From the NCBI RefSeq assembly GCF_014466985.1, contig NZ_AP022826.1, positions 558,001-622,000 of the forward strand: a stretch of 64,000 nt of DNA. Direction: 5' to 3'. Positions 27,201 through 31,502 of this stretch are shown in pieces (within the stretch, counting starts at the first letter, position 1; every line of letters starts with the position of its first letter). Under the pieces are notes generated by a model, which had not been told where the DNA came from, ran no database searches, and was given only the letters and a program-made list of their open reading frames with translations. This stretch comes from Nitrosophilus labii (lineage in GTDB: Bacteria; Campylobacterota; Campylobacteria; Campylobacterales; Nitratiruptoraceae). The translations under genes and the position numbers were made by a program.

Positions 27201-28130
27201 ATGAGTCTAGATTTTGATAAACCTTTGTATGTTTTAGCGCCTTTAGCCGGATTTACGGATCTTCCGTTTAGGAGTGTTGTTAAAAAGTTTGGAGCAGACC
27301 TAACCGTAAGCGAGATGATAAGCTCTAACGCCTTGGTTTATGACTCAAAAAAAACCTTTAAAATGCTTGAAAAATCACCGCTAGAAACTCCTTATGCCGT
27401 TCAGATAGCCGGAAACGACAAAGAGATCGTCAAAGAGGCGGTACTGAAACTAAACGAAATCGACGGCATAGATATCATCGATCTAAATGCGGGTTGTCCG
27501 GTTCCTAAAGTTGTTAAAAATGGTGCGGGAAGCGCTCTTTTAAAAGATATGAAAAAACTTGGCGAGATTGTTGAAACTATAAAAAAGTATAGCAAAAAAG
27601 AGTATATGAGCGTAAAAGTGAGGCTGGGATTTAGCGAAAAGATACCCGAAGATATAGCCAAGACTTGCGAAAGTGCAGGGGCGGATTTTATAACCGTTCA
27701 CGGCAGAACCAGAAGCGGTTTTTTTAAAAGCGAGGTGGATTACGAGGCTATCGCTAGAGCTAAAGAGTCCGTAAAGATTCCGGTTATCGCAAACGGCGAT
27801 ATAGACAGTTTCGACAAAGCGGAGTATGTTTTAAGTATAACAAAATGCGACGGCGTAATGATAGGCAGAGGCGCCGTAGGTAATCCTTGGATATTTTATC
27901 AGTTAAAAAACACTAAAGCGGATGTGAGCGAAAGTATAAAAAAAGAGATAATACTCGAACACTTTGATCAAATGATAGAGTTTTACGGAGATTACGGCGC
28001 CGTAATGTTTAGAAAACATCTTCACACATATTCAAAAGGGTATAAAGGCGCCGCTAGCTTTAGAGACAAGATAAACAGAATTACCGATCCAAAAGAGATG
28101 AGAGAAGAGATAGAGAGATTTTTTTCATGA
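27201..28130 (+). CDS. dus: tRNA-dihydrouridine synthase (DusB type)
   Basis: A 309-aa FMN enzyme reducing uridines in tRNA D-loops. It shows LAPLAGFTDLPFRS at the start, the catalytic Cys in DLNAGCPVPKVVKNGAGSAL, the phosphate-binding HGRTRSGF, and PVIANGDIDS with GVMIGRGAVGNPWIF. GAGG lies before the ATG. Its last four bases (ATGA) contain the start of cas6, so the two are translationally coupled. Confidence 0.95.
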   Translation: MSLDFDKPLYVLAPLAGFTDLPFRSVVKKFGADLTVSEMISSNALVYDSKKTFKMLEKSPLETPYAVQIAGNDKEIVKEAVLKLNEIDGIDIIDLNAGCPVPKVVKNGAGSALLKDMKKLGEIVETIKKYSKKEYMSVKVRLGFSEKIPEDIAKTCESAGADFITVHGRTRSGFFKSEVDYEAIARAKESVKIPVIANGDIDSFDKAEYVLSITKCDGVMIGRGAVGNPWIFYQLKNTKADVSESIKKEIILEHFDQMIEFYGDYGAVMFRKHLHTYSKGYKGAASFRDKINRITDPKEMREEIERFFS

Positions 28131-28966
28131 GATATATAAAGATAGCGGTTACCTCTAAAAGAAGCGCAACAAGACCTCCAAGGTTTATAGGTTCAATGGT
28201 TAGAGGCTGTTTTGGCGTATCTTTAAAAAAGATAGTTTGTATAAATCCCTCTTACGAATGCGGCGGCTGTTTTGCTAAGGATGATTGTATCTATTTTGAT
28301 TTTTTCGAGAAGAAAAATCATATACACAGATTTAGACTAGATATCGAAATTGATCCTCAAAAGATCGATTTTTCTATCTATCTTTTTGAAAAAAGCTGTG
28401 ATAGATACCCTTATATATTAAGCGCCGTTCATAAGATGTTTTACGATACGGGATTTGGAAAAAAGAGAGAAAAACTTCCTTTGGAGAGGATTGTTTGTAA
28501 TGATACTTTGATTTTTGAAAATGGAGAGTTTTTACAGAAGAAGATTGAATCGGCTCTTTTTAGCTGTGAAACTTTTAGTAAAGATATCTGTCTATCGTTT
28601 ATTACTCCACTTCGTATAAAATATGAAAATAGACTATTGACTCAAACCCCATCTTTGCGGCATCTGATCCAGTCTATCTATAATCGCTATTTAACTATAT
28701 TGGGTTTGAAGCCTCAAAAGCTCCCTTTTGAGCCAAAAGGAGTAGTTGGAAGTAGCGATATAAAGTTTTTGGAACTTCAAAGATACTCAAATAGACAAAA
28801 AACTAAAATGAATCTAGGCGGTATCATAGGCGAAATGGAGATAAAAGAGATCGATAAAGAGAGTTTTGAACTTTTAAAACTAGCTGAAATCATAGGCATT
28901 GGAAAGCAGACCGTATTTGGTCTTGGAAAAATTAAAGTGACAGATATGGTCGCTGAAACTAAGTAA
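28127..28966 (+). CDS. cas6: CRISPR-associated endoribonuclease Cas6
   Basis: A 279-aa RAMP protein that cuts CRISPR precursor RNA inside the repeat. The C-terminal glycine-rich loop GIGKQTVFGLGKIKV (from about residue 257) is diagnostic for Cas6. Near the N-terminus, PRFIGSMVRGCFGVSLKK and four cysteines (38, 45, 48, 54; motif CGGCFAKDDC) match the RAMP Cas6 subgroup with a Cys cluster. It overlaps dus by ATGA and is followed, after 196 bp, by the CRISPR array on the same strand. No cas1, cas2 or effector genes are in the window, so it may process transcripts for a distant type I or III effector. Confidence 0.88.
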   Translation: MRYIKIAVTSKRSATRPPRFIGSMVRGCFGVSLKKIVCINPSYECGGCFAKDDCIYFDFFEKKNHIHRFRLDIEIDPQKIDFSIYLFEKSCDRYPYILSAVHKMFYDTGFGKKREKLPLERIVCNDTLIFENGEFLQKKIESALFSCETFSKDICLSFITPLRIKYENRLLTQTPSLRHLIQSIYNRYLTILGLKPQKLPFEPKGVVGSSDIKFLELQRYSNRQKTKMNLGGIIGEMEIKEIDKESFELLKLAEIIGIGKQTVFGLGKIKVTDMVAETK

Positions 28967-29162
28967 AATATAATATAAAAGATAACATAAACACAGTTTT
29001 CATTAAAGTTTCATTTAAGCATTAAACAAAACTTAAAGTGTCGATTTTATGGGGAACTATCTTCTTAAGAGAGGCTAAAAATGGGTTATAAAGCAAACTT
29101 TAAGAAAACTGCTGTTAAACTAGAATCTCGATTTTATGGGTATTTGAAAGCAAAATGTTGCT
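28967..29162 (+). promoter_or_regulatory. Probable CRISPR leader
   Basis: AT-rich non-coding DNA between cas6 and the first repeat. The far-end repeat is the degenerate one, so this is the leader side. It holds a 13-bp direct repeat TCGATTTTATGGG at 29041-29053 and 29128-29140, 87 bp apart, which could be an integration-factor or promoter motif. Confidence 0.6.
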
Positions 29163-29404
29163 GTTACAACTAAGACCCGATTTGAAGGGGATTGAGACAT
29201 AAAATTTAAATATCCATTTTTTTCATCCATCCATTCAGTTACAACTAAGACCCGATTTGAAGGGGATTGAGACCCTTGTTGCCCAAAACTATCAATACCA
29301 CATATTTTTACAATGTTACAACTAAGACCCGATTTGAAGGGGATTGAGACTTTTTTTATTTTTCTTTTCATCTTAAACTCCTACTAATAAAATTGCTAAA
29401 ATAG

Positions 29405-29575
29405 CTCAAGAGATAAGCAGGTAAGACCCCATTTTATATAGATCACTGCCCATGGAAGGAGGGCAAATCTCAAAGGAGTTTGTCACCTGCTTACAATCCC
29501 AATAGGTTGATTGGGCGCTAAGCCCCTGTCACGATGGAGACAGGATGAAAGCAGGCGCCTGCTTATCTGTTGAGC
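29405..29575 (+). ncRNA. Putative IS110 bridge RNA
   Basis: The non-coding 5' end of the element is dense in pairing. Outer stem AGATAAGCAGG (29411-29421) pairs with CCTGCTTATCT (29558-29568). An alternative first domain stem AAGCAGGT (29415-29422) pairs with ACCTGCTT (29485-29492), capped by GCCC-N9-GGGC. Then come hairpins CCCAAT/ATTGGG (29498-29515) and CCTGTC/GACAGG (29525-29544). Bridge RNAs of IS110 members occupy this position and fold into target- and donor-binding loops. The loop base AAAGGAGTTT (29472-29481) is the exact complement of AAACTCCTTT in the reconstructed target. Ends are approximate. Confidence 0.7.
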
Positions 29576-29607
29576 TTATATTTTTTTCATTTGAAAGGAG
29601 GATTGGA

Positions 29608-30804
29608 ATGCGTTGGTTTCTTGGAATCGATATCTCCAAAAGCAGTTTCGATACCACACTGTTAGATGGAAAAAGTGGCAAACTCCATCACGATAGATTC
29701 ACAATGGACAAAGAGGGGCTCGATGCACTTATGAAGCATCTTACTCCTTTGCCCAAAGACTCTCTGTTTATCGTGATGGAATCAACCGGCATCTACCATC
29801 TTCCCTTGCTCGCTTTTTTGCTAGAACAAGGGTTTACATGCAGTGTGATCAATCCCACACTGCTCAAACACCACATCCAATCCTCTACACTGAGAAAGAG
29901 CAAGACCGACCGCAAGGACGCTTTGGCCATCGCCCGGTTTGCCTCGATGCACCATGCTTCGTTGAAGCCTGCAAATCTGGACGCTTTAAGAAGTATCCGA
30001 CCTCTTCTAAGAGAGCGTGAAGCTCTCAGTAAAGAGGTAGCCAAACTCAAAACAGACATCAAAGCCTTGGTCGATCAGCTCTTTCCAGAACTTTCAAAGA
30101 ACACCAATATCTTTACCCGGAGCATCTTGCATCTGCTCCTGCAAGCTCCTTCACGCAAACGCGTTAGGAACTTGAAGGAGAAGAAGATTCAGCGTATTTT
30201 AGACAAAGCCAGTGGCAACAAAGTTAGACTCTCAGCCAAAGAGATTCTTGCTTTGGCTAAAAACTCTATAGGCATCAACAATCCCCATCTAGAAACAGTA
30301 CTCCAATCAAAAATCAGAAGATTGGAGCATGTCCAATCTGAGATTGAAACTCTCGAAAAAGCCATCGAAGAAGCCGTGAAGGAAGAAAGGCTCGATGATG
30401 ATATCCACACCCTCACTTCCATCCCTGGTATTGGGACTACTACGGCTACAAACTTTGTTGCTGAAATTGGCTCTATCAAGCGTTTCGCTTCAGTCAAACA
30501 GCTTTGTGCCTTTATTGGGTTTGACCCAGCCATCCGTCAAAGTGGTAGCTCCATTGATAGCAAAGGACATATCTCCAAAAGGGGACACGCCTCGCTTCGA
30601 AGAACCCTTTGGCAGATGGCGATAGGAGTGATTCGATGCCTTCCCAAATACAAAGCCTATTATGAAAAGAAACGTCAAGAAGGCAAAACCTTCAAACAAG
30701 CTGTTGTCGCTGTGGGCAACAAATTGCTTCGTCTGCTATTTACGCTGTTAAAGAACAAAATGCCATTTCACGAGGAATTGGCTATGAAAGGTGTAACTGC
30801 GTAA
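29608..30804 (+). CDS. IS110-family recombinase (transposase)
   Basis: A 398-aa DEDD recombinase. The RuvC-like N-domain has Asp8 (GIDISKSSFD), Glu58 (VMESTGIYH), Asp101 and Asp104 (KTDRKDA). A coiled-coil middle follows, and the C-terminal Tnp domain has the helix-hairpin-helix-like SIPGIGTTTATNFVAEIG and the catalytic-Ser region RQSGSS at about 311-315. All parts appear intact, so it may be active. I chose the ATG at 29608, preceded by GAAAGGAGG; an in-frame ATG at 29545 lies inside the RNA stem. It works with the upstream bridge RNA to recombine the element into a matched target. Confidence 0.95.
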   Translation: MRWFLGIDISKSSFDTTLLDGKSGKLHHDRFTMDKEGLDALMKHLTPLPKDSLFIVMESTGIYHLPLLAFLLEQGFTCSVINPTLLKHHIQSSTLRKSKTDRKDALAIARFASMHHASLKPANLDALRSIRPLLREREALSKEVAKLKTDIKALVDQLFPELSKNTNIFTRSILHLLLQAPSRKRVRNLKEKKIQRILDKASGNKVRLSAKEILALAKNSIGINNPHLETVLQSKIRRLEHVQSEIETLEKAIEEAVKEERLDDDIHTLTSIPGIGTTTATNFVAEIGSIKRFASVKQLCAFIGFDPAIRQSGSSIDSKGHISKRGHASLRRTLWQMAIGVIRCLPKYKAYYEKKRQEGKTFKQAVVAVGNKLLRLLFTLLKNKMPFHEELAMKGVTA

Positions 30805-31198
30805 CACCTCTCTTATCTATTTTTGAAAGGGTTTGTTTATAGTTGACTCCTTTTTTTATTTGTTACAACTAAGACCCGATTTGAAGGGGATTGAGACTGT
30901 CTTTCAAGCCAAAGACATAAATCTTGTACAATATCTAAGTTACAACTAAGACCCGATTTGAAGGGGATTGAGACTAGTTGTTCGAGTTCATCATCATGTG
31001 GTATATCGGCGTTTAATGTTACAACTAAGACCCGATTAGAAGGGGATTGAGACTAGCAATTTCTTTCATCGACATATCAGATTGGCACATATGTTACAAC
31101 TAAGACCCGATTAGAAGGGGATTGAGACCCCACAATGTATACTTTATCCATTTTTTCTCCTTATTACTTAGAGGTTACAACTAAGACCCGATTAGAAG

Positions 31199-31382
31199 TG
31201 AGCGAGGGTAAAGCGAAGCTTTAGAACGATAACTGCTTATCGTTTGTGCCCGAGCGAAAGCCTTGAGTATATGCGAGTTTGAAAATCTAGGATTTTCGTG
31301 ATGAGCATACGAAAGGCTGGTGTACCTAGAAGAAAATCGAGCGAGCAAAGCAAGCGAAGATTTTCGGTTATCTCACTTTGAG
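31199..31382. repeat. Structured 184-bp insert breaking the last CRISPR repeat
   Basis: The insert begins TGAGCGAGGGTAAAGCGAAG and ends near ...GGTTATCTCAC, so GTGAG/CTCAC mark the edges. Inside are hairpins AAAGC-GAA-GCTTT, ACGATAA-N4-TTATCGT and GAAAATC/GATTTTC, and a second copy of the start motif (GAGCGAGCAAAGCAAGCGAAG-like, from 31338). It is richer in G and C than its surroundings and has no open frame of note. It could be a MITE- or REP-like element; I do not recognise its family, and no clean target duplication is seen. Confidence 0.6.
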
Positions 31383-31502
31383 GGGATTTGGACTCGATGT
31401 TATTTTCTTAATCTCTTTAGGCACATTTGCCTTAAGTTTTTATTTATGAAAAATAATGGTCAAAAGTTTTGTCTATTTTTACATTTTTGTTACAATCAAA
31501 AT

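What the first reader, a model, noticed from the sequence alone, without database searches (positions are those of the whole stretch)
29377..30851. IS110 element sits inside a CRISPR spacer, with its insertion core and empty site reconstructable
Both edges carry ACTCCT. Keeping one copy restores a 42-nt spacer between two perfect repeats, against 39-45 nt for the six intact spacers. This pinpoints the exact core used by the recombinase without inverted repeats or target duplication. It also shows the array survived with function-grade repeats on both sides, so the element either separates the array into two transcripts or is itself transcribed through. A mobile element in a spacer may switch off the distal spacers or be maintained there as a tolerated landing site.
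Basis: partly seen in the sequence, partly recalled or inferred. Interest (0 to 1): 0.8.

Follow-up and report, generated by a model that had tools for sequence, protein, structure and literature searches.

The report
Start-codon-seeking IS110 inside a CRISPR spacer
A small jumping gene that normally lands at the ribosome-binding site and start codon of genes has landed in a virus-memory unit (CRISPR spacer) that itself reads like a copied gene start; the insertion is real and its empty site can be rebuilt, but the memory array it hit lacks its partner enzymes in this genome.

Summary
A 1,469-bp IS110-group element (29378-30846) splits a CRISPR spacer; removing it and keeping one CTCCT restores a 42-nt spacer between perfect repeats. 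An identical second copy exists in the genome, and sister genome G148 carries that copy's site empty, verifying the one-core rule.

The landing site is explained. The element and its relatives insert at translation starts: 12 of 12 other sites are the Shine-Dalgarno/ATG of an apparent gene (reverse complement CAT-N5-10-CTCCTT or a near variant). A covarying left-end bridge RNA carries AAAGGAG, complementary to CTCCTTT. IS900 has nearly the same target motif. The restored spacer, read antisense, is AAAGGAG-TTTAAG-ATG-AAA-AGA: a stored gene start, hence a legitimate target.

The array looks like a leftover: G148 has a full type III-A locus with these repeats, but here only cas6 and the array were found. 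Effects on distal spacers are untested and probably moot.

Side result: type III spacers of these two genomes are enriched for antisense gene starts (8/43 against 0/71 type I-B spacers), which would make such arrays one-way landing pads. New member of a known kind, in an instructive place.

The parts
28127..28966 (+). cas6, repeat-processing endoribonuclease; upstream neighbour of the array
   Evidence: Pfam CRISPR_Cas6; 99% identical protein beside the type III-A locus of G148
28967..29162 (+). leader of the array
   Evidence: Similar sequence precedes the arrays of G148
29163..29350 (+). CRISPR repeats 1-3 and spacers 1-2
29351..29377 (+). left part of the interrupted spacer, holding the antisense start codon CAT (left target)
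29378..30846 (+). IS110-group element, 1,469 bp (core CT counted once, at the left edge 29378-29379)
   Evidence: identical second copy; natural empty site of that copy in G148
29397..29402 (+). -10-like TAAAAT of the predicted circle-junction promoter
   Evidence: 17 nt from TTGACT when the ends are joined
29400..29581 (+). predicted bridge RNA in the left end
   Evidence: fold z -5.7; 14 covarying pairs in 8 relatives
29430..29440 (+). likely left target guide CATTTTATATA
   Evidence: position in the alignment and CAT plus T-rich content shared with targets; register uncertain
29472..29478 (+). right target guide AAAGGAG, complementary to CTCCTTT of the target
   Evidence: 7 of 7 pairs at both sites of this genome; covaries with target in G028 and G104
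29501..29512 (+). likely left donor guide AATAGGTTGATT, resembling the donor right end ATAGTTGACT
   Evidence: conserved in the alignment; by inspection only
29608..30804 (+). transposase/recombinase, 398 aa
   Evidence: Pfam; nearest solved structures ISCro4 and IS621 transposases
30843..30848 (+). -35-like TTGACT at the right end
30847..30861 (+). second copy of the CTCCT core and right part of the interrupted spacer (right target CTCCTTT)
30862..31173 (+). CRISPR repeats 4-7 and the distal four spacers
31174..31393 (+). terminal CRISPR repeat split by a 181-bp repeated element (31199-31379)

Best explanation
It is an intact IS110-group element whose bridge RNA recognises translation-initiation regions. 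It recombines at a CT core within the antisense Shine-Dalgarno sequence (CTCCTTT), a few bases from an antisense start codon (CAT), without duplicating the target. It entered this CRISPR spacer because the spacer is, or closely mimics, the antisense copy of a gene start (AAAGGAG-TTTAAG-ATG-AAA-AGA-AAA-ATA). The array belongs to a type III-A system whose effector genes this genome appears to lack, so the insertion is most likely a neutral landing on a legitimate target in decaying DNA rather than a regulatory device. Shown: boundaries, second copy, natural empty site of that copy, target rule, conserved RNA fold, guide-target covariation, no detectable type III effector. Inferred: mobility today, left-guide pairing, foreign origin of the spacer, neutrality.
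For: Identical second copy with the same edges and its natural empty site in G148. 12 of 12 other insertion sites of the element and relatives lie at the SD/ATG of an apparent gene, in one orientation. Left-end RNA with z -5.7 and 14 covarying pairs. Right guide AAAGGAG pairs with CTCCTTT; G028 and G104 guides and targets change together. Joined ends form TTGACT-17-TAAAAT. No RAMP or Cas10 match here, while G148 has both. IS900 motif CATGNNNNNNTCTCCTT (PMC8141618).
Against: No empty version of this very spacer and no protospacer was found. The left target guide does not pair in a fixed register (CAT lies 8-13 nt from the core). Bridge RNA, circle and mobility are predicted from sequence only.
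Confidence: 0.88

Rival explanations
1. The element recognises the CRISPR array itself (repeat or spacer position) and uses arrays as safe landing sites.
For: It sits in an array; nothing else in the window tests this.
Against: The other 12 sites of the element and relatives are gene starts, none in an array; the guide matches the spacer's CTCCTTT, not the repeat.
Confidence: 0.03
2. The insertion changes expression of the distal spacers, either cutting them off from the leader or driving them from the right-end -35-like TTGACT.
For: The right end carries an outward TTGACT; transposase gene and array run in the same direction.
Against: No promoter-like site was reported across the right junction and no sense-strand terminator-like site in the element. 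Without effectors there would be no immune effect.
Confidence: 0.15
3. The insertion was selected because it destroyed a harmful spacer, as with ISC1359 in a Sulfolobus spacer under selection.
For: That precedent exists (PMC3025118).
Against: No self-match of the spacer was found in this genome or family (up to 3 mismatches in a 26-nt stretch), the effector seems absent, and the site is explained by the ordinary target rule.
Confidence: 0.05

Closest known systems
IS900 (Mycobacterium avium subsp. paratuberculosis, IS110 family)
   Same: One-way insertion at CATGNNNNNNTCTCCTT, i.e. antisense start codon and Shine-Dalgarno (PMC8141618); no target duplication; title of Doran 1997, cited there, says it targets translation initiation signals.
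   Different: Other phylum; sequence relation of the two transposases was not compared here; this copy sits in a CRISPR spacer, not before a gene.
IS621 and bridge-RNA recombination (PMC11208160, PMC11208158)
   Same: Same transposase domains, left-end RNA with guides on the two sides of a loop, CT core, junction promoter.
   Different: IS621 targets REP elements; here the target is the SD/ATG region. RNA and activity are only predicted here.
ISC1359 in spacer 28 of Sulfolobus solfataricus (PMC3025118)
   Same: An IS inside a CRISPR spacer.
   Different: Different IS with target ACGT; recovered in transformants challenged through that spacer.
Type III-A CRISPR-Cas of the sister genome G148
   Same: Same cas6 and same repeat.
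   Different: G148 keeps cas10-csm genes and three arrays; the window's genome has one array and no detectable effector.

Membership tests
IS110 family, IS110 group | DEDD (RuvC-like) N-terminal and Transposase_20 C-terminal domains | tested here: met
IS110 family, IS110 group | long non-coding region upstream of the gene, short right end | tested here: met
   230 nt against 42 nt
IS110 family, IS110 group | no target-site duplication beyond the core | tested here: met
   natural empty site of copy 2 in G148
IS110 family, IS110 group | left-end bridge RNA with target guides matching the target | tested here: met
   fold, covariation and right-guide pairing; the left guide's register is uncertain and the RNA was not observed
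IS110 family, IS110 group | promoter formed at the circle junction | tested here: met
   TTGACT-17-TAAAAT by joining the ends in silico
IS110 family, IS110 group | circular intermediate and transposition | not testable with these tools
   needs PCR, reads or an assay
IS900-type targeting (translation-initiation regions) | insertion between antisense start codon and antisense Shine-Dalgarno, one orientation | tested here: met
   12 of 12 other sites plus the spacer
Type III-A CRISPR-Cas | array and cas6 accompanied by cas10/csm effector genes | tested here: not met
   present in G148; no match in this genome

The most novel reading that the evidence does not exclude
Type III arrays of this genus preferentially store antisense copies of gene starts (8 of 43 spacers, none sense; 0 of 71 type I-B spacers), so bridge-RNA elements that seek gene starts find ready-made, one-way landing pads in them: two RNA-guided systems converge on the same sequence, and such elements should recur in type III arrays of other bacteria.
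Probability: 0.25. Interest if true: 0.65.

Novelty: new member of a known kind. Interest (0 to 1): 0.45.

Why it matters
It gives a bridge-RNA subgroup with a readable, general target (Shine-Dalgarno plus start codon) and natural guide-target covariation, and it explains an odd-looking insertion into a CRISPR spacer by the spacer's own content. The spacer bias it exposed bears on how type III systems choose or keep spacers.

Tried and rejected
Exact viral protospacer searches for this spacer, the last spacer and four G148 spacer sequences gave nothing. No match to the element in plasmids and only distant transposases (under 60% identity) in phages. Looking for the empty spacer in relatives failed because G148's array at this place has collapsed and other relatives lack the repeat or hold other arrays. 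The idea that the repeat is the target was rejected from the other insertion sites. A six-base ACTCCT core was rejected because its first base varies in the targets. Three of the paper searches meant to find earlier reports of IS elements in CRISPR arrays found none for IS110; absence from that library proves little.

Full report
What is there. The window holds cas6 (28127-28966), a leader, and eight CRISPR repeats of 36 nt; the last one is broken. Between repeats 3 and 4, where 39-45 nt are normal, lie 1,511 nt. They contain an intact 398-aa IS110 transposase (DEDD_Tnp_IS110 and Transposase_20) with 230 nt of non-coding left end and 42 nt of right end. Taking out 29378-30846 and keeping one CTCCT leaves a 42-nt spacer.

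Boundaries and core. A second copy, identical over 1,477 nt, lies elsewhere in the genome (G000:C1:1414421-1415614, minus strand). Both copies begin CTCCTACTAATAAAATT and end GTTTATAGTTGA followed by CTCCTTTT. A close relative of this genome, G148 (97% identical DNA around cas6), has the second copy's locus without the element: AAAAGGAGGACAATATGAAAAAG, against the rebuilt AAAAGGAGGATAAGATGAAAAAG. So one core is kept and nothing is duplicated. In the more distant relative G028 donor and target share only CT; CT core guides are also those described for IS621 (PMC11208160).

Why it landed there. Insertion sites of relatives were read in G003 (two sites), G289 (four), L028, G389, G012, G028 and G104, plus the second copy here: 12 sites. 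In every one, the reverse complement of the left flank starts an apparent open gene with ATG, and the junction carries CTCCTT or a near variant (antisense Shine-Dalgarno), always in one orientation. In L028 and G389 the contig ends before the right flank, so there only the left side and the element's own CTCCT were seen. For G003a the printed translation began at a wrong ATG; the ATG at the expected distance opens a frame by inspection. In the second copy the element's own edge (AGGAG when read from the gene) replaces the gene's Shine-Dalgarno at the same distance. The CRISPR site obeys the same rule although no gene is there: the rebuilt spacer read antisense is AAATAAAAAAAGGAGTTTAAGATGAAAAGAAAAATAAAAAAA. 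IS900 has the motif CATGNNNNNNTCTCCTT (PMC8141618) and is described as targeting translation initiation signals (title of Doran 1997, cited there; that paper was not read).

How it is guided. The left end folds far better than shuffles (z -5.7), and the alignment of eight relatives has 44 consensus pairs, 14 with compensatory changes. In the place of the right target guide stands AAAGGAG (29472-29478), fully complementary to CTCCTTT. In G028 and G104, whose targets read CTCGTAT and CTTGTAT, the guide reads ATATGAG and ATACGAG, each pairing better with its own kind of target than the other guides do. A left target guide CATTTTATATA (29430-29440) is likely, but its register varies between sites. 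The joined ends form TTGACT-17-TAAAAT here, and TTGACT with 17-nt spacing to a -10-like hexamer in the five relatives checked, as expected of the circular form (PMC11208160). All of this is sequence evidence; no RNA or circle has been measured.

The array. In G148 the same cas6 and repeats belong to a type III-A locus with cas10, csm genes, CARF proteins and three arrays. In this genome no RAMP protein and no Cas10 was found. The same RAMP search matched in G148, so it works on this system; the Cas10 search had no such internal control. A separate type I-B-like locus with its own, different repeat is present. The interrupted array is therefore most likely a remnant. Whether distal spacers are transcribed cannot be said; no sense-strand terminator-like site was seen in the element.

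Timing. The two copies are identical and G148 has no match to the transposase, which suggests arrival after the two lineages split; loss in G148 is not excluded.

Spacer content. Antisense SD/ATG motifs occur in 8 of 43 complete type III spacers of the two genomes (one of the eight may be a hairpin coincidence) and sense ones in none; the type I-B array has 0 of 71 (Fisher p = 0.0003, or 0.0008 without the doubtful one). The motif was chosen after seeing the first cases and some G148 spacers overlap one another, so these p-values are optimistic. One further array, in G051, gives 1 of 6, again antisense. Several G148 spacers also fold into strong hairpins. No protospacer was found.

Verdict. 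It is a bridge-RNA element doing what its group does, at a site that mimics its normal target. The surprise lies in the match between what the array stores and what the element seeks, and that needs a survey to become more than a suggestion.

Noticed in passing
window 31174-31393; L094; L097: A 181-bp repeated element (11 matches in the genome) splits the last CRISPR repeat; the same element splits the terminal repeat of all three arrays seen in G148, so it marks the distal end of these arrays. A shorter match also lies beside the second IS110 copy, and in G148 at the same place without the IS.
   Followed up: partly
window 29163-31173; L094; L097; L116: Type III spacers of this genus are enriched for antisense gene starts (8/43, none sense; I-B control 0/71), and several G148 spacers are strong hairpins, as if gene starts and terminators were preferred.
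   Followed up: partly
L095 14103-17627 (G000:C1:1344102-1347626): Inside the genome's type I-B-like cas operon lie a reverse-transcriptase-domain protein (599 aa, RVT_1) and a YhcG/DUF1016 PDDEXK nuclease, unusual neighbours between cas7, cas5 and cas3.
   Followed up: no
L094 (G148:C65): In G148 the array beside cas6 has collapsed to a single repeat, itself split by the 181-bp element, while two longer arrays with similar leaders persist.
   Followed up: partly
G000:C1:1493194-1494110 (L073): A decayed relative (63%) of the IS110 element with a similar right end and CTCCTT junction but a damaged gene and no matching left edge.
   Followed up: no
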